A stretch of 64,000 nt of DNA from Lepidurus packardi (taxonomy: Eukaryota; Arthropoda; Branchiopoda; Notostraca; Triopsidae), in contig JAKZAN010000146.1 of the NCBI GenBank assembly GCA_023053545.1, forward strand, positions 1 to 64,000, read 5' to 3'. Positions 14,973 to 49,625 of this stretch are shown piece by piece. The notes under the pieces are model-generated. The model did not search any database. It was not told the DNA's origin and saw only the letters and a program-made list of their open reading frames with translations. Position numbers and translations under genes: made by a program. How positions within the stretch are numbered: the stretch's first letter is position 1; each line of letters opens with the position of its first letter.

Positions 14973-17900
14973 ATGGGCAAAAAGGCCAAGGAACTAGTCA
15001 TCACCATGTTCTTCTCTCGCTACGGCGAAAACTGCTATGAGGCTTCCTACACAATTGAACGCTCTTACTACGCTGCAGGCATCGACTACCAAGTCATACT
15101 CGAACATAAAAACTATTTCGTCGCCTAATTCAACATCACCTCAGAGGTTCGCATGAGCTACATTTCTGAAGACGATATCATCCCTCTCACTGAAGGGTTC
15201 CAACTCGCTCTTCGTCAGCTCGAGACTGAATATGAAGGCTCTCTTGTCGTTCTCCTGCGCGCAGAAGTCGACATCCTGGCGAGTCGAGTTGAGGAGGTGG
15301 AGGAGAAATTGTAGAAGATGATGAAAGATATTGATGAGATCAAGGCATCAGTGGCGCAACCCGTACTGGAGGAGGGGTCTCTTAAGAGGCTAATGTCGGT
15401 GCCGGAGAGGCTGGTGCGGGGAGCGTCGAGCCTGAGCAACACGGTAGAACACAATATCGACGTGGGGATTCTGTTCAGCGAGCCTCTGGTGCAAAAGAAA
15501 GACGAGAAGGAACCATTGAAGCGTTCGCCGTAGCCTGTAAAGTTTCGGGAAGAGATTGACCGGTTAAAAAACTCTCTGAAAGTAAAGAGTATCCAGACAA
15601 TAGTCTGATTTTATTCCTATTTCCAGAGAACGAGTCGAGGATAAATATTCCTCAAATGCTCCATAGCCACCGTAGAGAAGCTGGAGAACCTCCTCAAACA
15701 GAAGGTCGGCATCCTCCATATCATCTGCCACGGAACCATCTAGGTCGAGAGGAAAACTGGCCTCGAAGAGGGAGTTCTCTGTTTCGAGCAACTCTACAAC
15801 ATCGGGCTGATGGACAAAATCTACGGACGCCAGATCCCGGATCTCATTAAGGTCATACCGCCCCATCAAAGACCCAAACTCGTGTTCATCAATGCTTGCC
15901 ACTCAGAACTTATTGGTGATGCATTCCTCAAGTCTGGAATTCCTTTCGCAATCGTTGTTCAATCTTCATAAAAGATTGAGGACTCAGCCGCTCAGATTTT
16001 CGCATAAAAATTCTATAACTCTCTCTTCAATGGGACATCAGTCCGCAAGAGCTTCCTGGATGCGAAAGACTCTTTGGATCGCCAGAAACGTCCAGTGAAC
16101 TCCAACATTTGCTGCTGCTTCCACGCCAACAACCACAGCCGAGGGTGCCTATGGAAAGAGCTCGTGGTGTAACTCGGACAATAGCGCGTAATGCTCCTCC
16201 TAGACTTACTTTTTTTAATCCAGATCACTTTACGCAAACCACTAGTGCCACGATTTGTATCATATACCAGTTTGTCATTGCGCGAGGCGCCACCTCAACC
16301 TACACGAGCGTGAATGCCAGTGGGCTATCGACACACTCTTCACGATCAATCAAGATTTCAGAGTAGGCGAGGGGGAGCAGGCACGACGTCTTACCCAGGA
16401 GGAATTGCAGACATATACCTAGCTTCTTATCTGTTGCTGCTCGACACCTAACCGCATGATTCCTCATGACGAGAGTGAGAAATTTAAATTCAAATACAAT
16501 AAGGATACTGACCCCGAGACTGTGCTGTTCCCGCCTCAAATCACAGACATGGAGTCTGAGGTTTATGATGAAACTTCGATGTAGTTGTTGAACGAGTTCA
16601 ACAAAGACATCAACCTAGCAGGGAGAAATATGGAGGTGTACAACCTGATGGTCAGCATGAAGGACAAGCCCCGTGTGTTGTTAGTTCATGGGGGAATAGG
16701 TTCGGGCAGAAGTGGAGTGGTATCCAACGCTGCTATCTATTTGATTGAGAGGAGTTACTATCGAGATGGGTACTACCACTTGGACCTTTCAAATTGCAGT
16801 AAGACCATAGACTTCGAGTTCACCTTCCTTAAGATGGTGAAAGGCTTAAAAATAGCCGGCCTGGACGACCTGCTGAGATTTCTGAGCAACAAAGACATGA
16901 TCCTGGTGCTGGATAACTGTGATCTCTTCTTAACTTCTTCGACTGATGAGTTCGTACGCACAGTTAACACTCTCATTTATGCCCTTAAGAACGCGAAGAT
17001 TGTACTAGTTTTGAGCGACAGAGTAGCCAAACAGTTCGACTCATCCATTTTCGGGTAACGCAGGATCAACTTAGAGCCCCTCAAGAAATTCGCAGCCGCT
17101 GACATGTTCTTGATGAATGTGCGCGAGTACTTGGCAGACATTAATATGGTGGACATCTGGAGGGTTTTTGAGGAGGAGAAGTTGAGAAGCCCCAAAACTA
17201 TCCTAGACATGGTCCACTACATCAGAAACCAGTATTCCCCCTCCCGCAGAGTGACTATCTAGGAACTCAATAGTTATGCGGATAGTATCCGTGATGGCAG
17301 AACATCCCACGAAAAATTCCTAGAATAGAACCTAAAACAATTGCGCACAGATTCAGAAGTCTATCAACTCTTCCTATTTCTGGCCCAATTTCCCGCTGGT
17401 CTGACGGAACTGGACTTTGCCATTATGAGCAGCCAGCCCTCTAACACTGACCTCGACCCATCCACTTTGTTCCTACCTAAGAACTGGAAGGATCTAGTGA
17501 CCCGTCTTTTGGCAGAAAAGGACACGCCCTAAGGGGTATTCAGCGATAACCTTCCATCGAAGTTCAGCTAATATTATTACTGCAGCGTGGACGGAACATC
17601 AGGGTGTAGACGAATCCGCGTCAAAAAATATATTCTGTAGTACATACAGAAGCATGAAGAGTATCAGAGAGGGTCAGACTTGACATTCAAAGCTGTGGCT
17701 TACCTGTCTAACTACTGTTCTTTACTGGTCAAAATCGTGAAGGACAAATATCACTACCACTAACATCTATTGGAATGCTCAACTATCTCTGAGTGTGGAG
17801 TCTTCCAGTTCGAAAAGGTGAGTCGGTACTACTAGCTGTTCGATCCAGACGACTACTTCCCAGATATGTTTGTAAACTTGACCAGCAGTGCTAGTCGGGG

Positions 17901-20589
17901 CCACTAGCTTGATACTCAGATCAAGTCTCTATTCGCCAAAAACGAAGACCTCAAAATCGATCCTATACAGTCCATATTGCAGCACCAAGATAACTTCATG
18001 CAGATCTATAGGAATGACTACGAAGAGTACTATAAAGGACTCGTCTCAGAGAAGTCTAAACTATTCAAATACTACTACCAGAACCTGCTGCTCAACATAC
18101 CAACCGTGATCAAACTGGCACGAGACAAGGTCAATCAAACCTTCCTCAGATTTTGCATCGATTAAAGTGAAAAAAGGATCCGCCTCTTGGAACCAGGGAA
18201 GATCAACAAGACTCTCAACATGTACTTGATCAAGCTCGACTATACTAGATTGGTTTTCTAGATACAGAATATGCCTCTGCAGGAAATTGGAGGCTATCGA
18301 GCCTTCATTTAAAGCATCAAGAGAAGACTGATCTGGGATTAAAAATCTGAAATGACCAAGGTAGAACTGTTGTAGTTCCGATACATCGATATCTTCATTT
18401 ACTTCGAAAACCTGAAGCGCAACGGTCGTCCTGAGAACTATGCACAGATGCTCAAGGAAAATTCTAAGTTCAAAGCAGCTCTAGCATAGGTTGACACAAA
18501 CGCTTTAGGTACACGCATCCTTATCGCAAAGAGGAACCTGTTACTCGCGCATGGCTACTTCTGGATCCTTGAGAAATCTGAGAGCGACAAAGGCAGCAAA
18601 GGGTTTGAAGAGTACAAGAACAGTTATGACTACAGCAAGAAGGTTAGGCTGTTGATAGAAGCAGTGGAGACTTTCAAGATGGCCAAACTGATTCTGCTGC
18701 AGATCGACGCATCGATCGGAGTCGCAAAGATGAAACTGGCGCATTACAAGAAGAAAGGGGCCGAAGTTTCTGAATACTTCTAGATTCGGAAGACTTATAT
18801 CCAGCCTTGTAGACAGTTGCTGAGCAGCTAAACATTGAGAGTCAACTCGAGAGACAGGTAAAATACTATGACTGAACTCGAAGAAAAACTCAATAAGAGG
18901 GTCTGGCAGAAGATCAAAAACTTGATAGTCTTTGTGAAAGCCTGCCCATTCATTTCAGAACAGGGTGAATCTATTCCCTACAACACAATCCGCCGGTCAC
19001 ATAACTTCAAGTTCCTCGTAGAGTCTACACTTAACGTCTAAGATTATCCTCGCAAGAATCTACGCCAGAAGTAGGTCAGTGTTCGGTTTGAAATCCTGAC
19101 CAAACAAAGGCTTTTCGATATCGTTTCTCAAGGTTGTTCTATTATGATGCTACGTATTGACTCCCGAGTCGAGGGGGGGAGAGTACTCCTACAGTTCTAG
19201 AACTAAGGACAGCCAACTGAAGAGAGAGTTGATATAGATTCATTATTTCGTGAAGTGAGCTGGAAGAATGTTAGTACCATTGTTATTTGTGGCTAAAATG
19301 CCCAAGCGGTCGCGGAAAGACTCAAGGCGATGGAGAGGTAAGACCTTCCTACAGTTGTAGCAATCAACTTTGCCACCCAGACTTAAGTAGAGGGGGTCGG
19401 GTTCGATGTTGCTTACAACGACTACTCCATGCGCTCCCTGCAAAGGGTGGCTTCTAACTACTTCATGGTGAAACTGAGTGAGGATGTGGTCTACGGAGAA
19501 CCTGTTTCTATCAATGATTTTAGTAGGGTAGTCAAGTAGGCCAAGGCGAGTACTGTCTTATATATGATTGGATTCTCAAAAATCACACATTGCGAAGAGA
19601 AGCTAAACTCTCTGCTTCAGTTTGAAGTATTTGAAGGCAGAGACGGTTCAAAATTGCAGTTCGAAAACGGACACTTCCATGATGTCTCCAGCAGGAAGAT
19701 CACTCTCCACAATCTAAAGCGCACAGCCACTACCTTCGTGGGTCGAGAAAAAGTCTTCACTTCGATCATTCAGCGGTTACAACAAAATTAGGCAAAACAG
19801 GAACCGATCTATGCCAATGTCTTCGGACTCAAAAACTGTGGGAAGACTGCCTTTATACATGAATTGGCAGAAACTCTGCTCGAACGGGGCTACTTCAAGA
19901 GCGGGATTTACGTCCTAAATGGGTGGGAGATCGAAGCTGAGCACAAGGGCAACATCCTAGCGTATCTGGAGAAAAACAAAAATAGCATCTTCCCCGCCAA
20001 CTATCTCGCCGAGAGCCAGAACGCTGAGACAACACCAATGCTGCTCATCATTGACGACTTCCACGCTCTGAAAGATCGGACTCATCTGCTTGAGGACTTT
20101 TTCGCGAATGTCTACAAACGCGGTGTGAGCCTCATCTTGACGAGCAACGATAAGCTGGCAACGTCTATGGTGCCTTGGTTCGCCAAGAACTGTCTAGTGG
20201 ATTACGAGATGAAAAGGTTTACTTAGGAGGAGGCGCAGATACTAGTTTTATCGAATGTTCCACTTTATGACTTCGAAGAGTATAGGGAGCACTTCAAAGT
20301 ACTGTTTTTGAATCTTCGAAAAAAGTTGTCTAATCTGATGCCCAAGGTGTTGATCGATGAGTTCCGACGACTTTGGCACACGGCGAATCAGAAGTCTACT
20401 GCCCTGAAGTACGGCAACTACCGGGAACACGTAGAGTTGCACGAACGCAGACACCGGACTCAGCACGAAGGGTTGCAGAAAAAGAGTGCAAAGAAGATTT
20501 CGATAACGGTGGAAGGAGATGGAAAAGGAGGAGGGATACCGTTGAAGCTGAAAAGACTATCGCGGGTCGAAAGTGTGCATCCGCCTTGA
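14973..20589 (+). CDS. CHAT caspase-like domain plus two STAND-type NTPase domains (1845 aa)
   Basis: Three exons; introns 15603-15626 (24 nt) and 16169-16223 (55 nt), both restoring frame. Residues ~1-130 are unknown, with a coiled coil at ~105-130. CHAT domain ~165-350: ILFSEPLV, GILHIICHG (catalytic His245) and VFINACHSE (catalytic Cys301), then GDAFLKSGIPFAIVVQ. Next come two Cys/His motifs of form H-x3-H-x3-C-x-W. First P-loop NTPase: GGIGSGRS at 547-554, with Arg553 replacing the Walker A Lys, and MILVLDNCD near 616. A long helical region (~650-1330) follows, then a CHAT-like block without His or Cys. The second NTPase has FVGRE, GLKNCGKT (1592-1599, intact) and LLIIDD (~1664). CHAT is a clan CD protease fold (separase/caspase relatives), and STAND ATPases are signal switches. 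The combination suggests a regulated protease in cell-death or defence signalling (inference). Confidence 0.85.
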
Positions 20590-20724
20590 GTTGGGTCGAT
20601 ACTTTAATATAACTTATATATGACCGAAGGAGGGTATTAGGTTTGGTTGGTTTACATTTTCCTATCCACGACTATATAGAATACCAGACTTAACTTCATC
20701 TAATTCTTCGCCTAATCGAATACC

Positions 20725-23215
20725 ATGAATATCTTAAAGTCCATTCTAGAAACCACTGCCACCTCCAATACCCTCCACTCTAAGGTCGACACCAACCTCT
20801 TCAACACCCTCTTTAGGCACTCCAACGACAACTGGGACTTCGAGGAGGCTCTCTGGTATGGCAAGAAGCATCAGTTCCTGAGTGCGCGGAACAAGGAGTA
20901 CAAGGCGACCTGCTATTTGCTGGAACACTACTGTGGTTTACTAGTGGTGCTGAGGAATGATGGTCGTAGCAACATTCTGGACATCCGCAACCTGAAACTA
21001 AAGTAGGATGTGATGAAGGAGGCGAGATTGTCGAAACTCAGAAATCGGGAGTATATAGTTCTGAAGGAAAGAGGGGACTAATTAATTTTACTGTTCGACA
21101 ACTCTGCAGAGAAACAGACATTTGTCAGGGACATGAGGCTTTACAAGGACAGGCTGAACAGCGACTAGCCCTACGACGAAGAATTCTCCCAGGCCAACAA
21201 ATTCTTCGAAATGTACAAGATCGACTATTACCTCACCTGGCCCACCTTCAACTCAGTCCTTTCCAAGCTCAGCTTCACAGACAAAGATCGCAATTAGTAC
21301 CTTATTCGGTTGGTAAAGCACAAACTACGCGCCACCACAGCTTCCGGAATCACTCATCCAGAATTTATGACCTTTTTGAGGGTCTCCTTTTGCACTCAGG
21401 AGATCCATGAGATATTCAACAAATATTGCTCGCAGACCATCCCCTTTGATCCACGCAAACCCAAGCTGGAGGTTCTCGAGGATCGCATGACGCTGTAAGA
21501 GTTCGATCGCTTTCTGACTGAGTAACAGCAAGAGAAAAACAACACTAAAGAACATTGTAAGGACCTATTCCCATTGCCAACGAACAGAATCAGCCTCTAC
21601 AAATTCGGCAGATACATCTACTCTAATGAGAACAGTGCATTCGACAAGCATATGCGTCTCCAACACCACCAAACCAACCTCCCTCTCACCCACTATTACT
21701 GTTTCAGCTCCCACAATACCTACCTCACAGGGAACCAGCTCACCAGTGATTCCAAGGTCTAGCGCTACATAGAGGATCTGGACCGAGGGGTGCGATGCGT
21801 TGAGCTGGATGTACATGACAATGGTCACACTCCCATCATCAAACACGGGTACACTGCGACCAAACCCATCAATTTCGAGGATGTAATCAAGGCGATTTCG
21901 AAGTACTCTGAAAATCACCCCCAGCATACTCCGATCATTCTATCGATCGAGAACCATTGCAATGGCAACAACAGGGAGAAGATGAGTTCCATTTTAGCAG
22001 ACGAGTTCAAGGATCGTATCTACATGATCTAGAAGAAGTCCACGAGATTCGGGACTCTCGAAGAACTCAAAGGCAAAATCATCATCAAGACAGATAGCAA
22101 GCGAGAGACGACAAAACTCATGGACTTCGACTTCAAAGACAGCGAAACACCTGCTCCCTTCCTGAAGCATTTGGTCGAGCCAGACAGAATCGACTAGAGC
22201 CACATCGCCCGACTGCATTACAACTTCACGCTGTCCTTATTCGATATCAAAAAGCGAAGGTTCTTGCAGTGGACTCAGTAAATGAAGGAGAACAGAAAAA
22301 ATACCTTCCTTGAAGTTAAAAAAGCGATTTTCGTAATCCAGGACGAGAACATGAAGCTGGCTAAACTGACAGCCCTCTTCAAAGGCTCTATCAATCCCAA
22401 TAGCTCCTTCTGCGAGACTTTCAGTCTTTCGACGAGCAAGGCAATGCAGAAGTTTAACAAGAACCTAATGCAGATAGTAAACTTCACAAGCAGAAGTTGG
22501 CTCAGAATCTATCCATAAGGAACTAAGGTCAATAGTGCGAACTATAACCCTATTCGTAAAAATCCTTATCTTCTGATCCTGCTTTGTTATAGCTTTATTA
22601 TAAATGGGGGCACAGATTGTCGCTCTAAACACCCAGCAACGTGACGTCTTCATGACAATCATGTTCGGTCATTTCCAAGAGAACGGGGGGTTCAACTCAG
22701 GGTACGTGCTGAAGCCGGAGTACCTGCGGTAAGGGCGCCTGGCTCCGTAGTACTGGCCGATGAGGGTGACTGTGCGCGTGGTGAGCAGCCTGAACATCCG
22801 AGACCTGGCGCGGTTCGGGAAATTCACGTACTGTGTGAAGATGGGTTTTTTCGGTAACTAAACATCTCCTGACATGATCATTTCTTATGAATAGTTTAAG
22901 TAAATACGATAAAGTACAGGAAGTATCAGCGATAGCATCCCCGCTAATAAAAATGCAGCACTCGAGCAGGCCACCGAGTTCGTCAGCCAAGAGGATGCCT
23001 ACTTCAAACAGTCCTTCCCCCGGTCCTTCCTGATCAGCAAGCCGTACTTCGCATTCATCTACTTCTAGGTCGAGCGGTTCGGTCGGGTGGCGCTGCCAGT
23101 GCGAATGGCGCGACAGGGCTACCGAGTGCTGCGACTACTAGATACGAACTACTAACCGATCGGGTCAGCATTCATATTGGTGCATCTCAAAATCGAGAAG
23201 TAGCAAAGAGCGTGA
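20725..23215 (+). CDS. Phosphoinositide-specific phospholipase C, PLC-delta-like (817 aa)
   Basis: Two exons, intron 22556-22592 (37 nt), phase-correct. Layout: N-terminal PH-like region, EF-hand-like region, X domain (YYCFSSHNTYLTGNQLTSDSK with His330; CVELDVHD; KHGYT second His; LSIENHC; ELKGKIIIK with the paired Lys), Y domain (SWLRIYPEGTKVNSANYNP, GGFNSGYVLKPEYLR) and a C2 domain ending LPVRMARQGYRVLRLLD. All residues known to matter for catalysis and Ca2+ binding in PLC-delta appear present. It hydrolyses PI(4,5)P2 to diacylglycerol and IP3 at membranes. A TAG codon sits at the Glu of the SKVE-RYI block, supporting the code. A possible intron around 22855-22895 was rejected because reading through keeps the frame. 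Confidence 0.95.
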
Positions 23216-29545: not shown

Positions 29546-31786
29546 ATGAGTGCCCGTCTTTGCCTACTATTCTGCCTCCTCGCCGTCGTCTTCTCTGCCT
29601 AATTTCTCGACTACACCGTATAAAACACCCTCCGCTGCCAGAAGGTCGATGTCGCATCTTAGGAACAGATGTGGTAACTAGCCCCCTTCAACTATCTCAT
29701 TACTCCTCTAGGAAGATACTAATTCTCCACAAAATCGACCAGTACTGGTTCATCATCGTTGGCCCCATTTCTCTGTTCTTCAGTCTGTCTGTGATGTTGA
29801 GCTTCCTCGTCCCCGATACCAGGACTGCCCCTGCAGACATCATATTCGCCATTGCTTTCTTCGACTCAGTCCTAATAATCAGTGTCATAACACAAGGAGG
29901 TAAGCCTTGTTCATTCCATAATTAAGCAAGCATACTTTTACTAGCATGATTAAACTCAAGTCCCCTCCGACTTCTCCGCATTCTGTCAAGCATCGGGGGT
30001 GCTTAACGTTATTGGGCTCGCAGGCCTCACTCTCTACGATATAATTTTCAGTGTTTTTCTCGCCTACTCGATCCGTCACACGCTGAAAGGCCGGTTTTTT
30101 ACCAAGACCCAATACCATGCCTTCAGCCTGTTTTGCATAGTACTGACTGTATCGTCCATCAGTCTATCCAACAGCACTGGCCGAAGCCTGGGAGGAGTTT
30201 GTGCATTGCGGTATTCGGACGCGTCGCCTTTTCTGTATCTAGCTGGAGCGATTGTGCTAGGGCTTATTGCAACCATTTCTGTGACGATGTTCAGAAAAGG
30301 TATCCCGAAGAACAGCTTCTTCCGACAGCAGAGTGTATACAAGTACTACTACTTCTATGTTGGCCTAGTGGCTACTGTCCAACTACTGATCAGTTTCTCC
30401 TACTTCATCGGCTATGCAAACTGCAGCTCCAACAACCCTGACCCGATGCTCATGATCTCGGTGACCATTGGCAACTGCTTCCAGACAGTGCATCCTTTTC
30501 TCCTGGCATTCATCCGCTACAAACATCCAGGCATCAAACGAGCTGTTAGAGATTTGTTTAAAAGGAAACGCCGGCTCTAAGACTCGGATATTGATGCTAT
30601 CATTGCTATGGACTCCCCAAACAAGACCCAGCCAGTCGAATACAATTGGTTGGGGTCACTTCTGGAGTCCATCAGAGGCAGCCAGGTTTATTCCTTCCTC
30701 ATTGGTATCCTCATTGCACACTCAGAATATGAGCCCTCCCTCATGTTCTCTTAGGTTAACTTCTCCACCCACTATTCATTCAGGCTCGATTAGTACACTG
30801 CAGACCTCTACTTATAGCGATGCAGGTCCAACCAATAGAACCGAGTCGTCACCCGCGAATTAGGTGGTCTCAAACCCCTCGACTATGAGGTGACAAGCTA
30901 CTGCCCCGGCATTTTCAGCTACTTACTTAAGGCTACGTAGCCTGACGTGCGGATGGAGAAGTCTCTGAACATCAAGTAGAACAGCGAAACTATCAAGAAG
31001 GTGGCTGAAGTGGAGGGTGGGAAAAGTGGTGAATTCTTCTTCTTCTCGTACGATCACCAGATCATATTCAAAACAGTGAAGAAGCACGAGGCTGACCTTT
31101 ACCTAAGCCGTATCCGAGACTTCGTTTAGCATTTCCGCGAAAACGAGCACAGTTTGATAGTCAAGCTACTCGGAGTCTACCGGTTCAGGAGGTTGGACGT
31201 CCGAGAGGAGGACATATACATGATTGTCCAAAAGAACATGGCTATGTGCGAACGCACCTACATCGAGAGGATTTTCGACCTCAAAGGATCCAAGTACAAC
31301 CGATAGGTCCTCAAAGGTCCACAGATTAAGGAACTTACCCATCTGACTCTGATGGATGTGGACTTTATGAAGACTGAAAAGAGCCTGGACATATCTGCCC
31401 TCGCGGCGAGGAATGTGGCACGCATCTTGGAGCGAGACGTCAAGTTCCTGAGCAGTCTAGATGTGATGGACTACTCTTTCCTGGCCATAAAAATCGACTG
31501 GGGGAACAGAGCTTTCGCGGAGGAGAAAAGCATTGAGCAGATTCTGCCAGAAAATGTGGATATGTTTCAGGTGGTGGCCTCGGAGACACAGCAAGGCATG
31601 TACTACCACTTCGGGATCATCGACTATCTTCAGCAGTGGAACTTCGTGAAGAAGACAGAGAACCTGATCAAGAAGATCATAACGACGGAGTTCGAGCAGT
31701 CGATAGTGACTGTGGAAGAACCCAAATATTACGGCGAGAGGCTGGTGTCCTTCATCCGGTCGATCCTGCCGCTAGCCAACTAGTGA
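29546..31786 (+). CDS. GPCR-phosphatidylinositol phosphate kinase fusion (713 aa)
   Basis: Three exons; introns 29674-29711 (38 nt) and 29900-29960 (61 nt). A signal peptide (residues 1-18) is followed by seven hydrophobic segments to about residue 310, ending in a basic tail (RAVRDLFKRKRRL). The C-terminal PIPK domain has SGEFFFFSYDHQIIFKT (~459), MYMIVQ-like strand, IFDLKGSKYNRE (~543) and MDYSFLAIKID (~607). A TAG gives the Glu of the NRE block, conserved in PIP kinases. The GPCR-PIPK architecture is known from amoebae, oomycetes and other protists; the kinase would make PI(4,5)P2 or an isomer under control of the receptor half. The final codons are TAG TGA. Ligand unknown. Confidence 0.92.
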
Positions 31787-41768: not shown

Positions 41769-44700
41769 ATGTCCAAAGACGAATACGACACCCACCTCCG
41801 CTTCGGGCAGGGCATCCAGATCTAGGGCTACGTCGACTAGGAAGACCGCGGCTTCCTCACCGCCAAGGGTTTCGCAGATGTCAAGGCCAAATACGAAACC
41901 TACGACAACTTGCTCTTCTTCCAGAACTACAGGGATGCAATCTTCCAAATCATCCCTGCCGGCAACTTCGAAATCCATGACTAAATCAGCAAGCCCGACC
42001 TCTCCCCTGAAGTCAAGGAAAAACTCTAGAATCGAGCCCGCACCGAGCTTGAGCAGTTCAATGCAAACATTGAAAAGTACCCTATCCTTGCATCTATATT
42101 CTTAGTAAAATGAAATAACCCATCATCTTCGGCAGCAACGTCATGTTTAAGCACATCGACTCTGAGAGCTATCTGACTGGCACGATCAAGCCTAGCGAAG
42201 GCGACCAGGGTGCCTTTGCAGTCGAAGTTTCGACCACACTAACTTCGAACTTAATTTTTCAGTTGTTGCCTTACCGGAGCTTCGAATTCGAGGGCATGAA
42301 GATCCCTTTGCTCTCACCAGTGCTGGTGAAGAACGTCAAAAACTCCACATACTTGACTTTCGAGAAGTTCTCTAAGACAGAAGCGATCATTCGAAGTAAC
42401 ACCTTTTCCATCTATATGGACTTCCCCATCTATAGAACTCGACCAAAAGCCTATCCCTTCGCGCCAATCCTTCAGTATCCCGATCAAGAAAAAATCGTAG
42501 CATTCTAAAGTCTACAACTGTGTCTCTTACAGTGGCGGACTCTCCTCCCCCAATAACTAAACCCTCACTCCCTGGAAATTTAAGCTTCACATGAACGACG
42601 TCGTGAATGACAAACTCATTCAACATGATATCGGGTATCTGCAGCACACTGAGAACCAAGGTGTTCTCACGGCTTTTAGAAACGAAGTCGCTCTTAAAGA
42701 GTTGAAAAACTCTGATTCGTCTACCCTGTCGAGCTATGATTGTCTTTGGGAAATCGAGAAACATGACGGAGAGAACGAGTACATCTTTAGGCATTTGATG
42801 TCAGGAATGACTCTCGAGTTTGTTGACAAGGAAACTGAAGGTGTAAGGCGTACGGTGCCTGTCCTCAACGATATTTCGCAAGGCGATCATCTCGGCTCCA
42901 TCGAAATGGTCATCGCAAAAAAATAGGGTGGATAGATCTCATCAAAGTCATTCGTGCATCTGTGTAAAGGCGAAAGATGTCTGGACATATCCAAACACAC
43001 CAAGCTGGAGTAGAGAGAAGTCAGCAAGGGGGACATGAACGATCACTCTATAGCAGATGAGGCGTTCACAAGCCTCGTAGAAGAAGAACTGGACTACGTA
43101 AGAAGAGATATGGAACTTTCGGAAGAGTTCCCAACCCATTGTTTTGTAATTGAGGAGATTGATGACGAGACCAAGAAAGAGGTGCTGTTCGCTCTTTCCT
43201 TCCACCAAACGCTGATAAATCTGATCGATGAGTTGCGATGGGGGACAGTCTATGCTGAGAAGCGCATCACCTATCATAAGATGATCCACATCAACAGATC
43301 CCTCAGGGAAATTAAGGGATTCATCAAGAACTGCAAAGTTGAGGAGGCAGACAAGTAGGAGATCCTACCTATCCAGAAGAGACAAGCTATCTGCAAGGAC
43401 TTAGGCATGAGCGAACTCTTGTTCGAACTTCTGCACTACATGAAGATAAACAACAATGAGAAGATCTTCGCTAATAGTCCCAACGAGCAAGACAAGTTCA
43501 ACGAACTCTACAACACGTGCTACGAAGTCATCGAAGTCATGATCAAGGACAACTATCTGTTCAAGATCCACGTCTCCAAGTGGATTGATTTTGTCATTGA
43601 AGACGTGATTGAAAAGGATGAGGAAGAACCCCGACTCAAGGCCTTAGAGGAAATGTTACGCAACAACACTCTTCTTGTCAACAACTGTATCAAAGAAGGG
43701 CTCATCAATTACCTCGCGTAGAAATTTCAAGAGACGTCTGACAGGACCAAGTATATGAAGATATTCCGAGGTTTCTGCATTGTTGGAGATCAGGCTGTGA
43801 CACGGAACCAGACCATGATCCTCAATCAGTTTATCAAGAGACTGGAGGGTAGCCCCAACGCCTTCAACATGCGCGTCTAAAAAGGCAACGCCTAAATCTA
43901 AATAGTTGTACCCAAAAAGCCCAGCAAGTTTAAACTCTTCGGCGACTTCTACAAAACCGCAACTGATGACTACTCCACCGATTGGAGCTACTTCCTATAG
44001 TACATGCATCTTCTGGCAGACTTATGCTACGGAAGAAACAAAGTTGTCAAGTCTTATTTTTAGAAACTGTATGACCTCCCTGTCCTCATCGCTCTTTTGA
44101 AAGATCCTGCTATCCATGACGCTTTCGTGCCTGTCCTCAGACTAATCCAGCATCTCCACATTGAAGGAGCCTACTACTATCCCGTCCTTAGGACACGCAG
44201 TATTGCCCTTTATACTAACCTGGACAAAAAACCAGAAATCAGTACGAGCGATGCTGAAGTGAAGCCCTCAGCAACACACATGAAACACCTCATGGATTTC
44301 TTGTTAAAAGAGCTTTCTGAAAATGATAAGCTTCATTGTCCTTACACCATAAGCACGAAAGAAAACAGAGCCTAATGGATCGCTAATGCCGAAAAAGGCT
44401 ACCCTAAAAACCTTAAACTGCTCACTATCTTGAAGGGCTTCCTTAAGACTATCGAACTAGGTTTCTGGGAGAGCATGGAAGACCTGACCAAAATCCTGCG
44501 ATACTCCCAGAACATCCTGAAGAATGACTCGGCAGCTATCACCGGACGACTGGAGAAGACCGAACTTGTGGACCTGAAGGAAGCCTATTCGATCCTCAAA
44601 AAGCAGATGGAAATTCCGACAGCCTTCAATTTACTCATAATAGAGTGTAAACTGCTGGCTACTAAGATCATCGAGTATATACTAGATTTCTAAGTGGACC

Positions 44701-47700
44701 TCAGAGTGAGCGAGACTAGCCGCATCTTCAAGAATCTGATCCTGGAAGAAAATAGGCCTGACAAGTCAGAACTCCCTGATTTAAGGGAGATCCTGGAGGA
44801 GGGTGAGAGCAAGTCAACGTCGGACCTCATGGAAAAATGGGTCAAAAACCTACTAGAGCTGAAGAACCCCAAGTAAAATTGCTTCATCGAACAAATCAAC
44901 ACGATCTTGCTGGAACTCTCGCAGTATGGCGACGCCCAGCTCCTGAGCCAGTCCCTCCTCATCATGAAGAGACTATACGATCAGCGCAATGAGAACATCA
45001 ACCATTTCTATAATGTATGCTTCGTGGGACATAAAGAGTATCTGGACCTCGCTCTCTTTACCCTGAACCGGAGACCCAAATTCTACACTCTACAAGACCA
45101 AAACATTCTCCACGTGACCAAATAGTCTCAATCTCTGAGCTACTACAATATCTGCAAGTAGTCCTCGGACCCCAGGGAGTCAGGTATCATGCAGGATCTA
45201 TACACCTTCTGGGAACTCATGAAGAACGAGAAAAGCATCGCGAAGCTTAACAACCTCCCCAATCTGACTGACTCTGGCCTGCTAGGCCAACTCGCTACAG
45301 ACCGACTCATTAACCTCTCCAACGAGAGAGAATGCAATAACAAACTTTCGCAGAAAATAATAAAGTCATCTCGCATCCACGAGCTCGTAGTAGGGTATGT
45401 GATTTCCTGTCCTACGCGGCCTGCTGAGGATCTAGCTGCCAAATTGCTGCACCTGTGTTATATCTTCCTGACGGGGATTATCACGAACAACCAGGAGAAC
45501 AAGCTAGAGCTGGTGCGATACTTGGAGGCGATGAAGCCTCACTTGGAGTTTAACTTGGGCACCGTTGATTTCCTGAAGGAGATGTACGACAACAACAAAA
45601 ACATGCTGTACAATGAGAAGTAGATCCAACAACTCACAGTCCAGATCTGTGGCATCATCAATAAACTCGACGTGTCCAGCTTCCATCGGTCCAAACTCCT
45701 CGATTTCTTCAGAGCCTTGGTGTACTTCAACGAGAAGACCCTCAAGGACAACCAGATACTCATACTCAAAATTATGCAGGACGACGAATATCAGAACATC
45801 ATGCTCAACGTCGAAGACACCCAGATCACTGAACTCGTCAAGGAATACATCAACATGAACCCTATCCCCGTCGATGAAAATGACCACATCCCAGAAATCC
45901 TCAAAGTCACTCCTGAGCTCACATACTTGACTACATTTTTCCAGATCATGGCTGCCATGATCGAAGATCACAATACAGTCAACATCGGTAAGCTCACCAA
46001 GAGACACCCTTTCAACAAACTCGTCGACTTCATCTCTGCGAGCGAGAAATTCTGGCCTCTTAAGAGACACCTCAGAACTTACATCAACAAGCTGTACTAC
46101 ACTTTGCCAGGCCTCGAATGCTATCTTAACGTCATTGTGGACAAGGAGCTTGATAACATCATTTACGATCTGAATCTTTTCATTGAGCTTAAGGTTACCA
46201 CAAGACGAGAACAGCACGAACAGCGCAAGTTCTAGAACCCTGTTCGTTTCAGCTATCTGGAGTCGTATCTGTACTTGAATCTGGAAGAAGTGTTGGTCAC
46301 CCTCAACGAGATATTCATCCACGATAAGATTCAACTAGAACTGAACACCATCATCGCCAATCTAGTCAACGAGAAGGGAGACAAATAGCTAGCACGTAAA
46401 GTTCTCAGAATCCTGGAGAGACTCGGTTGTATCAGGACTTACTTCACGGAACAGAAGAATACCTACACAGTATCACTGATCAGGTATATCCAGTCGCACA
46501 TCAAATCTATGGTGGTCGAATGGCCTCACACAGTCTTCGAGGGCAATATGGGATCAGTCTCTGTGGCTAAAAAGTTCCAAACCAAAACCGAAAATGACTC
46601 CCTTCGAAACAACCTCATTGACAAGATCGTGCATGGAGAAATCGAAGCCATTTTCAGCCGCAACACCGAAGAACAGTGGAAGAACTTCCCTCTAACCTAT
46701 ATATTACCTGATAAAGCCATCAAGAAGGAAGAGAAGAAGGGTCAGGGTGAACCCAAGGACACCCGTCCATTAAAGGAAAGACTCCTCCAGATCTTCCAGC
46801 GAAAGAAGGATGGCTCTGGCGATCTGAATGTTGACTACAACAAGAAGCTGGGACGCATGTTAGCTGTGATGAAGTTGTCCGAGACTTTCAAGAAGTACAC
46901 CCAAGTGGAGTTCATACAGGTTGCTAACAACTTCTCCTGTATTGATGAGCTGAGTAGGGCTGTGTATCGAGTGGAGTACATCTCAAGAGAGCAGTATATC
47001 ACCACCATAATCAACATGAACAGCAGGAACCCGCAAGCCTTGTCCTCGGAGCTTAAAATATTTTTCCTGAGGTTGCTGACGAGATTCATAAGTGAAAAGA
47101 ATAAGAATGATAAAGAGGGCAAACCTGTCGACGAGTGGGATGCTATCTACTGGGATGGCCAGGAGAAGGATATAGAGGAGTAGCAGCAGTTGCTCAAAAA
47201 ATGTGGGCTGGCCAAGTACCTCTGCGAACTCATGAGCGAGGACATCGTCAACAATATCGAGCTGGCCAACGAAATCCTGATTTGTGGGATCGCCTTTATG
47301 CTGGGCGGATATACAGTCAGTCAGAAGAGTATCTTGGAACTAATGGAGAACGACGAGGACAACAAAGTGCTGTGCAGCATCCACGGGCTGATCGTGAAGC
47401 TGGGCGATCTGATTTTCAAGAACAACGACAAGAAGAAGTCGACGGTCTAGACCAACCGAACTTTCTCAACGACTATTATCGACACATACGACTACTACAG
47501 TTCTTCAGAGAAAAGTTGCTTGCGGAAGAATGTGTTTGAGCCTGATGACGCCAAGGAGGAGGAGTACAAACGCATCTGCATGTCGACGTACCGGAGAACC
47601 TACAAGTTCATCCAGCTCTTGTGCGAGAACAATAACGTCGACGGCAAGAACTTCATCAGAGAGCAGAAGAACAAGGAGAACGGAGAAAAGAAGATCAACA

Positions 47701-49625
47701 GTGTAGACTTCATCACGGTAGCTACCAACGAGCTGAGGCAGATGTTCCTGATTCTCTGCAAGGAGATCATCGAAATTCCCAAGTTCATTCTGGACTTCAT
47801 TCTGGAAGTCACCCAGATCCCAGTCGACAAGAACCAGATCGTGCTCATGCGGTCCACATTCTTCGAAGACCTTTGCCAGACCGAGACCTTCTTCAGCAAG
47901 GAAGCCAATATCGAGGAAAGAGAGTTCGGCCCCGCAGAAATGGAGACTCTCTCCTAAATATATTCGAAGTGCGTCACGATTGTACTCAGCTGCTTCGAAG
48001 GAAACGCAGATGAGACCTTCTCGTCTCTCGACAACAAACTCAAGGCTCGTTTCTTGACCAACATTATCGACAAGAATATGGAGAAAGAGGGCCTAACTTC
48101 CAAAGAAGCGTTGGACAAATACCTATCTGAACACAAATAAGCCACCTTCGACGAAGTGATAACCCGCATGCTCGATGTCATCATCATCTTGAAGAAGATG
48201 AAGGAGAAGGTGCCCGACGGAAACCTCATTGGCTCATACGAAGAGTACAAGAATAAGTACAAGGATGATCCCAAGTACGAGGTCATCGAATTCTTGTAGA
48301 ACTGTCTCATCAACATCGAAATCGCAGACAGCAACGGGACCAACCAGATCCTGTACTTCCCGAAACACCCGGTGTTTGGGTCTTTGTCAGGTCAGTTGCG
48401 CGATGAGGTTATGTACGACGTGGTGCGGGACTCCAGGCGTGACAAGCTGGTCTCTCTCTTTAAAGAGTATAACCGCATCAGAGACAGCATGGAACACTCC
48501 TACAAGATGCAGAATGAGCGGGGTCTGACTGAGGAAAAGCTGCGAAACGTGAAGTACATCGCGACTGCCATCAGCTTCATCATCACTATCTACATCTGCC
48601 TGACGTACTAAGTGTTCGTGGAGTACCAAGACGTCGACTACTATGCTGACAAGAAATCTCTGGTCCTGCTCAAAGCCCTCAGCTACATCCAGCTCCTGAG
48701 CTCCAGCTATTACGGGTATCTGTGGTACCAGAGCCAAGTCAAAATCGATATTGCGTCGTCATTACAGGTGGTGACATTCATAGCAGTTTCTTTCCTGGGA
48801 ACTTTCTGGAAGCCGTCGATGTTCACCCTCCATATCCTGGATGCCTTCTCGATGATAGAGATTCTGAAAGATATTTTCGCAGCCATCGCCTACAGTCTAC
48901 CAAGTCTCGCAACAGTGTCAATGATGGGAGTGGTGTTCGTCCTGATCTTCTGTGCAGTGACGTTTGGAAACTACGTGAAAAATGTCTATGAGCCTGATGA
49001 ACCCCTCTCGGACCGTTGTGTGTCTATGACTTCGTGCATCATGGACCTCTACGTTTCAGGAGCCATCGGGTAGACGATGGAGGAGTTTGAGACGCAGAGA
49101 TTCACCTACGATTTGATATATGGTGTCTTCTTCGGAATGCTCTTCTCCAACATCATTTCAGGGATCATGCTGGATGCTTTCGGGGCTTTGCGTGAAACCA
49201 AAGACTCTTTGAACGCCGACAAAAAGAACACGTGCTATGTTTGCGCCCAGCCGAGAGACGACATCGAGAAATCGGGGGGCACCTTCCAGAACCATATCGA
49301 AGAACACCACTTCCTCTGGAACTACATCTTCTACAGGTATGTGCTCAGAAAGAAAGACCCCACCGACTACACCGGCATGGAGTATATCATTTCAAGCAAG
49401 TTGAAGATCAAGACAGACGCTGCCGAGGACGACATGGACGAGGAGATCGAAGTGGACTGGATGCCAAATGCGGCGAGCGCCGAATTCGATGCAGACGAGA
49501 AGGCTGACGAGATCCTGGGAGAGCTGGAGGCCTTAAAGGCGTAGGCAGAGGAACGGGGGAGTGAGTTTAGCGAGAAGGCAGCATAGTTCAATAAAGCGGT
49601 GGAAGAGGCGATGGGCCGTGATTGA
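41769..49625 (+). CDS. IP3/ryanodine receptor-type intracellular Ca2+ channel (2589 aa)
   Basis: Three exons; introns 42077-42105 (29 nt) and 42475-42532 (58 nt). The N terminus has the Ins145/MIR region of IP3 receptors (LRFGQGIQIEGYV, SNVMFKHIDSESYLTG, TPWKFKLHMN, GDHLGSIEMV). A long helical solenoid follows (RIH-like). The C-terminal channel has about six hydrophobic segments from residue ~2250, a pore loop SGAIGE (filter region, Glu2406 coded by TAG at 49071-49073) and a final CYVCAQPRDDIEKSG....NHIEEHH zinc-binding block diagnostic for IP3R/RyR. The length is close to that of animal IP3Rs (~2700). It should release Ca2+ from internal stores (alveoli or ER). Whether it binds IP3 cannot be judged by eye. 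Confidence 0.93.

What the first reader, a model, noticed from the sequence alone, without database searches (positions are those of the whole stretch)
14973..20589. CHAT caspase-like plus duplicated STAND NTPase protein, an NLR-like switch in a ciliate
One 1845-residue protein joins a CHAT protease domain with an intact His/Cys dyad, a P-loop NTPase, a second CHAT-like block and a second NTPase of STAND type (FVGRE...GLKNCGKT). CHAT or caspase-like effectors joined to STAND switches are known from bacterial defence systems, fungi and animals and act in cell death. The duplicated effector-switch order in one chain, hidden by reassigned stops, is unusual. This is the best candidate in the window for an undescribed regulated-protease or self/non-self system.
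Basis: partly seen in the sequence, partly recalled or inferred. Interest (0 to 1): 0.88.

Follow-up and report, generated by a model that had tools for sequence, protein, structure and literature searches.

The report
Twin caspase-like NLR-type protein of ciliates
A ciliate gene encodes one long protein built of two protease-plus-switch modules, the first with a working-looking protease and the second with a dead one, a layout also seen in distant relatives and resembling the immune and cell-death receptors of other organisms; what it does is untested.

Summary

The layout is not unique: P0002 has the whole order, P0030 most of it. Single-CHAT STAND proteins occur in Paramecium and Euplotes, and one lies on a telomere-capped ciliate chromosome of the same assembly. 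The window gene belongs to a separate 'twin' subfamily. In it the live protease sits beside an altered P-loop (GSGRS), the dead one beside an intact P-loop (CGKT).

Best reading: an NLR-like protease whose C-terminal pseudo-half controls the N-terminal active half. This is inference. Self/non-self use is unsupported: two CHAT loci were found on ciliate contigs (a lower bound).

The parts
14973..15581 (+). Exon 1: N-terminal region (aa 1-160, coiled-coil-like by eye around aa 95-130) and start of CHAT1
   Evidence: code-30 frame, ATG at 14973; only weak sub-cut-off Pfam matches
15453..16103 (+). CHAT1 (aa 161-362), interrupted by intron 1
   Evidence: Pfam CHAT E=2.8e-10, 40.5 bits, cut-off 24, on the exon-2 part; alignment to P0001 and P0002
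15582..15626 (+). Intron 1, 45 nt GTAAAG...TTCCAG (alternative: 15603-15626, 24 nt)
   Evidence: removes the in-frame TGA at 15606
15627..16168 (+). Exon 2: core of CHAT1 and first part of the Cys/His block
15729..15731 (+). Dyad His238 of CHAT1 (ILHIICHG)
   Evidence: present in 4 of 4 twin-subfamily CHAT1 domains; coordinates
15897..15899 (+). Dyad Cys294 of CHAT1 (FINACHSE)
   Evidence: present in 4 of 4 twin-subfamily CHAT1 domains; position
16104..16500 (+). Cys/His-rich block, aa 363-476 (CCC...H...CLW...CHC...H...C.WA...CCCS), possible metal site, spans intron 2
   Evidence: same Cys/His columns in window, P0001 and P0002; a profile made from these 3 finds no other convincing match among 45 proteins; degenerate version by eye in P0030
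16169..16223 (+). Intron 2, 55 nt GTAACT...ATCCAG
   Evidence: joins the exon-2 frame to the exon-3 frame, one of many candidates; chosen because the joined Cys/His block fits the relatives
16224..20589 (+). Exon 3, stop TGA 20587-20589
   Evidence: open in code 30
16573..17172 (+). NTPase1 (aa 501-700), motif LAGRN, altered P-loop GGIGSGRS at 16690-16713, Walker B MILVLDNCD from 16897
   Evidence: aligned to P0001/P0002 NTPases
17173..18918 (+). Winged-helix-like and helical-repeat-like region (aa 701-1282)
   Evidence: alignment to P0001/P0002; mostly helical in the P0001 model at low to middling confidence; no Pfam TPR hit in the window protein
18919..19572 (+). CHAT2, pseudo-protease block (aa 1283-1500), dyad lost
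   Evidence: hhalign to CHAT1 95.0%, score 56.9, best of 200 shuffles 26.7; dyad table; its only His is at aa 1310
19717..20292 (+). NTPase2 (aa 1549-1740), FVGRE from 19735, intact P-loop GLKNCGKT at 19825-19848, Walker B MLLIIDDFH from 20038
   Evidence: Pfam AAA 21.9 bits (cut-off 21.2), AAA_16 E=7.6e-06 below its cut-off; hhalign to NTPase1 98.1%

Best explanation
It is an NLR-like regulated protease made of two effector-switch modules in one chain. Shown by sequence: an N-terminal CHAT domain with its dyad, a Cys/His block, NTPase1, a long region aligned to relatives, a CHAT2 without dyad, and NTPase2. Inferred: at rest the chain is closed, with nucleotide held mainly by NTPase2, whose P-loop is intact. 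A signal sensed by the helical region opens the chain. The dead CHAT2 then serves as a built-in partner of CHAT1, the way the pseudo-caspase FLIP(L) pairs with and activates caspase-8, and CHAT1 cleaves a cell substrate. The dead half would thus be the regulator and the first half the effector. Whether the result is cell death, development or stress response is open.
Confidence: 0.45

Rival explanations
1. An ordinary NLR-like protease in which only CHAT1-NTPase1 works; the second half is a decaying duplicate kept as scaffold or sensor.
For: CHAT2 end branches are very long (window 4.6 changes per column). In P0030 no NTPase2 was detected, but the same profiles also missed its NTPase1, which is visible by eye.
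Against: NTPase2 keeps P-loop and Walker B in the window and in P0002, where NTPase1 is the more altered one. The frame is open and the order is kept in a distant relative.
Confidence: 0.25
2. A housekeeping regulated protease (cell cycle, development), not immune or cell-death related.
For: Two CHAT loci found on ciliate contigs (lower bound). Neighbours look ordinary: HDAC6-type deacetylase, MAP kinase, phospholipase C, PIP5K and a RIH-domain channel. No gasdermin match at E<=0.0001 in the 10 window ORFs scanned, of 91 listed.
Against: CHAT on NLR chains is described from fungal cell-death receptors, and CHAT proteases from bacterial gasdermin defence (passages of PMC10197012 and PMC12881547).
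Confidence: 0.25
3. A diversified self/non-self (allorecognition) receptor.
For: Architecture like fungal CHAT-bearing NLRs (passages of PMC10197012).
Against: One twin copy and one single-CHAT paralogue found in the assembly. Hypervariable repeats were not looked for and there are no population data, so this is not excluded.
Confidence: 0.05

Closest known systems
Single-CHAT STAND proteins of ciliates (P0012 Paramecium primaurelia, P0014 P. bursaria, P0015 P. sonneborni, P0020 Moneuplotes/Euplotes crassus; paralogue P0007 on contig C97)
   Same: CHAT with dyad followed by a STAND-type NTPase; NB-ARC above Pfam's cut-off in P0007, P0012 and P0020
   Different: one module, GK[ST] P-loops, no match to the Cys/His block profile; in the CHAT tree they fall outside the 7 twin-subfamily domains (branch 95/92). 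P0024 of Stylonychia lemnae is a near case whose CHAT-like block lacks the dyad and gets no Pfam CHAT hit
[quoted passage not shown] passages seen)
   Same: caspase-like CHAT on an NLR chain
   Different: no gasdermin match in the 10 window ORFs scanned; the passages seen do not mention a second, dead CHAT
SAVED-CHAT (8tl0) and the caspase regulator TPR-CHAT of Craspase (7zoq), bacterial
   Different: other sensing parts in place of NTPase modules (from entry titles and recall)
FLIP(L)-caspase-8 pair (PMC7586951, passages seen)
   Same: an active caspase regulated by a dead paralogue; analogy only
   Different: two separate proteins; no NTPase modules (recalled)

Membership tests
CHAT peptidase (PF12770), first domain | Pfam score above the curated cut-off | tested here: met
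   40.5 bits vs 24
CHAT peptidase (PF12770), first domain | His and Cys catalytic dyad | tested here: met
   CHG and ACHSE, invariant columns
CHAT peptidase (PF12770), first domain | caspase-like fold | tested here: inconclusive
CHAT peptidase (PF12770), first domain | proteolytic activity | not testable with these tools
   needs protein
CHAT peptidase, second domain | Pfam score above cut-off | tested here: not met
   no CHAT hit up to E=5
CHAT peptidase, second domain | His/Cys dyad | tested here: not met
   lost in window, P0002 and P0030
CHAT peptidase, second domain | homology to CHAT | tested here: met
   hhalign 95.0%, shuffles and reversed control (14.9) far below; placed beside the twin CHAT1 domains, with long branches; fold model unusable
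STAND / NB-ARC NTPase | Pfam NB-ARC, NACHT or nSTAND above cut-off | tested here: not met
   window: only AAA passes (21.9 vs 21.2); AAA_16, NACHT and nSTAND are below; the paralogue P0007 passes NB-ARC (37.6 vs 23.5)
STAND / NB-ARC NTPase | NB-ARC-type fold rather than another AAA+ fold | tested here: inconclusive
   P0001 matches plant NLR, Apaf-1, CED-4, TnsC and ORC/Cdc6 entries at similar Z
NLR (tripartite receptor) | order effector - nucleotide switch - repeat region | tested here: met
   CHAT1, NTPase1, then a region that is helical in P0001; nature of the repeats unproven, see next row
NLR (tripartite receptor) | recognised repeat domain (LRR, TPR, WD40, ANK) | tested here: inconclusive
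   no Pfam repeat in the window protein; helices at low confidence in P0001
NLR (tripartite receptor) | ligand-triggered oligomerisation | not testable with these tools
   experiment needed
Self/non-self recognition locus | expanded or clustered gene family | tested here: not met
   two CHAT loci on ciliate contigs, C97 and C135 (lower bound, completeness unknown)
Self/non-self recognition locus | high polymorphism between individuals | not testable with these tools
   no population data

The most novel reading that the evidence does not exclude
Ciliates keep an old single-chain switch in which duplication and reciprocal decay split one NLR-like module into two complementary halves: a live protease on a weakened NTPase, and a dead protease on a live NTPase that holds, senses and then activates it by pairing within the chain. 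It would be a self-contained counterpart of the caspase-8/FLIP pair with its own nucleotide switch.
Probability: 0.25. Interest if true: 0.75.

Novelty: new variant of a known kind. Interest (0 to 1): 0.52.

Why it matters
Caspase-like proteases on NLR-type chains are being studied in fungi and bacteria. Full-text searches for 'CHAT domain' with 'ciliate', 'Tetrahymena' or 'Paramecium' returned 0 papers each (open-licence library only), so I found no study of them in ciliates. A chain that carries a live and a dead copy of the same module would let one ask how a pseudo-protease controls its active twin without a second protein, and some of the single-CHAT relatives lie in laboratory ciliates such as Paramecium.

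Tried and rejected
Structure of CHAT2-NTPase2 from a 3-row alignment: mean pLDDT 38, not used for a fold search. NCBIfam: nothing above its curated cut-offs for the 5 proteins given. PADLOC: weak matches only, SAVED_CHAT E=5.2e-4 on P0001, mad8 E=2.3e-8 on P0002 and 0.0028 on the window. NTPase tree: does not resolve NTPase1 from NTPase2. Two broad literature searches gave off-topic listings. PMC7159879: 0 occurrences of CHAT or ciliat. PMC10907252: one CHAT passage, bacterial. Separase as a twin caspase-like precedent: the passages seen say no second inactive domain was detected (PMC4626109), so not used. Two separate genes: rejected because no in-frame TGA lies between the halves and P0002 has the same order; no RNA data. 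Rows left out: P0021, P0023, P0033, P0034, P0035, P0038, P0039 and P0042 from the CHAT tree, as fragments or weak or partial matches; nt1 matches with i-E above 1e-8 from the NTPase tree. The Cys/His, CHAT1, CHAT2 and NTPase profiles match the proteins they were built from by construction; the independent test of the CHAT2 profile is P0030 (37.8 bits). The telomere pattern's reversed control is the same repeat and says nothing.
Full report
Gene model. Under table 30 the + strand is open from 16099 to 20589. Two short GT-AG introns (15582-15626 and 16169-16223) join it to two upstream exons, giving 1838 residues from the ATG at 14973 to the TGA ending at 20589. Intron 2 is one of many candidates that keep the frame open; it was chosen by fit to relatives. 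Relatives have Glu opposite TAA/TAG as often as opposite GAA/GAG (17 of 56 and 58 of 196), and Gln in 0 of 56.

Where it lies. The window is contig C135 (87,925 bp) of a 108.6-Mb, 344-contig assembly. C135 shows no telomere in the first 180 or last 3,926 bases. C97 (98,033 bp) has CCCCAA runs at both ends. C73 and C74 have them at their starts and again near 142.6 and 95.2 kb, so the assembly holds ciliate chromosomes. It also holds multi-megabase contigs such as C5 (12.5 Mb): in the 9 kb of C5 fetched, the longest open frame is 572 codons by the standard code and 575 by code 30, against 163 and 1557 in the C97 stretch. C5's CHAT gene reads like an animal TTC28 (recalled from the translations, not tested). 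The simplest view, an inference, is an animal assembly with a co-sequenced peritrich.

Domains. CHAT1 passes Pfam's cut-off. In the 3-row alignment of window, P0001 and P0002, the dyad and the listed Cys/His-block columns are invariant. Pfam finds no CHAT in the second block. The profile of CHAT2 (window, P0002) matches that of CHAT1 (3 rows) at 95.0%, score 56.9; the best of 200 shuffles is 26.7, the reversed profile gives 14.9, and five pairs of unrelated domains give 11.9-13.9. NTPase1 and NTPase2 match at 98.1%, 89.3 against a shuffle maximum of 19.7 (all). Against the reading: with the CHAT1 HMM alone, the CHAT2 of the window scores 4.7 bits (i-E 0.058), of P0030 10.5 and of P0002 28.9.

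Relatives. The first protein search found 2 proteins up to E=10, P0001 and P0002, at 29% identity over 94 and 97% of the CHAT1-NTPase1 stretch. The second found 4 up to E=1, none a new twin protein. The third, led by the C97 paralogue, found 37 up to E=0.01, with only the 7984 candidates sharing most words scored. They include three Paramecium species, Euplotes, Stylonychia and the oomycete Aphanomyces; most are unnamed. These searches reach only relatives sharing exact words and do not show how far the twin form extends. Of the 45 proteins then held (P0001-P0044 and the window), the CHAT2 profile finds a second CHAT block in the window and P0002, from which it was built, and independently in P0030 (37.8 bits). 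It also scores on CHAT1 of P0001 (24.7) and P0002 (19.9), as expected of kin. P0001 ends at residue 1189, before that point. The Cys/His profile matches only its three source proteins convincingly (next i-E 0.6); P0030 shows a degenerate block by eye.

Tree. Among 37 CHAT rows, the 4 CHAT1 and 3 CHAT2 domains of this subfamily form one side of a starred branch (95/92); on the other are the single-CHAT family, with the paralogue of the same assembly, and the bacterial rows. The 3 CHAT2 rows group at 80/89, not starred. The program warns of long branches (P0002 and P0030 CHAT2 meet) and of odd composition in P0030. A duplication inside the gene before these lineages split fits, but is not proven.

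Active sites. CHAT1 keeps His and Cys in 4 of 4 twin proteins; CHAT2 lacks both in the dyad columns in 3 of 3, though a Cys lies a few residues ahead in the window and P0030. P-loops: NTPase1 is GGIGSGRS (window), GSEGVGKN (P0002), GEKEIGKQ (P0030) and GIEGVGKS (P0001, intact). NTPase2 is GLKNCGKT (window) and GEPGSGKT (P0002). In P0030 no NTPase2 was detected, but the profiles missed its NTPase1 as well. Among P0007-P0025, 18 of 19 have GK[ST], some nearly identical to each other; P0025 has GRS, and P0004 has GKD. Walker B of NTPase1 is intact in the window and P0001 and altered in P0002 and P0030 (by eye).

Function. Neighbours are an HDAC6-type deacetylase, a MAP kinase and a phospholipase C. 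Of the 10 further ORFs scanned, 7 had hits: class-3 lipase, PIP5K, pectinacetylesterase, a RIH-domain channel, two kelch proteins and a kinase. No gasdermin appeared at E<=0.0001 (10 of 91 listed ORFs). Fungal CHAT-NLRs and gasdermin partners come from passages of PMC10197012 and PMC12881547, and pairing of a dead with a live caspase from passages of PMC7586951. The mechanism proposed here combines these by analogy and is not demonstrated.

Literature. 'CHAT domain' with 'ciliate', 'Tetrahymena' or 'Paramecium' gave 0 papers each. 'NB-ARC', 'NACHT', 'ciliates', 'Paramecium' (3 of 4) gave 6 listed, none read. 'CHAT domain', 'STAND', 'NTPase', 'eukaryot' gave 3, of which passages were seen in all 3. 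The library lacks most subscription papers and all bioRxiv preprints.

Noticed in passing
L008:3923-8596 (-), contig C97: Single-CHAT NB-ARC protein, 1557-residue open frame in code 30, same assembly, on a 98-kb contig with CCCCAA telomeres at both ends.
   Followed up: yes
G000 contigs C73, C74, C97 against C5: The assembly mixes telomere-capped ciliate chromosomes with multi-megabase contigs that look animal; probably a host assembly with a co-sequenced peritrich.
   Followed up: partly
window 20620-22644, 29801-31786, 42357-49625: Phospholipase C, PIP5K and a RIH-domain (IP3/ryanodine-receptor-like) channel lie within about 30 kb on one contig: parts of one signalling path. May be chance.
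   Followed up: no
window 16104-16500: Cys/His-rich block with a CCC motif near each end, shared by the twin proteins and without a Pfam family above cut-off.
   Followed up: partly
P0030 residues 1-200; P0001 residues 1-100: N-terminal parts of the twin proteins look alike by eye and could be ubiquitin-like; the P0001 model is low in confidence there.
   Followed up: no
P0004, P0022, P0025: Other CHAT proteins with an NTPase match; P0022 (Aphanomyces) and P0025 also list protein-kinase families in their precomputed Pfam domains.
   Followed up: no
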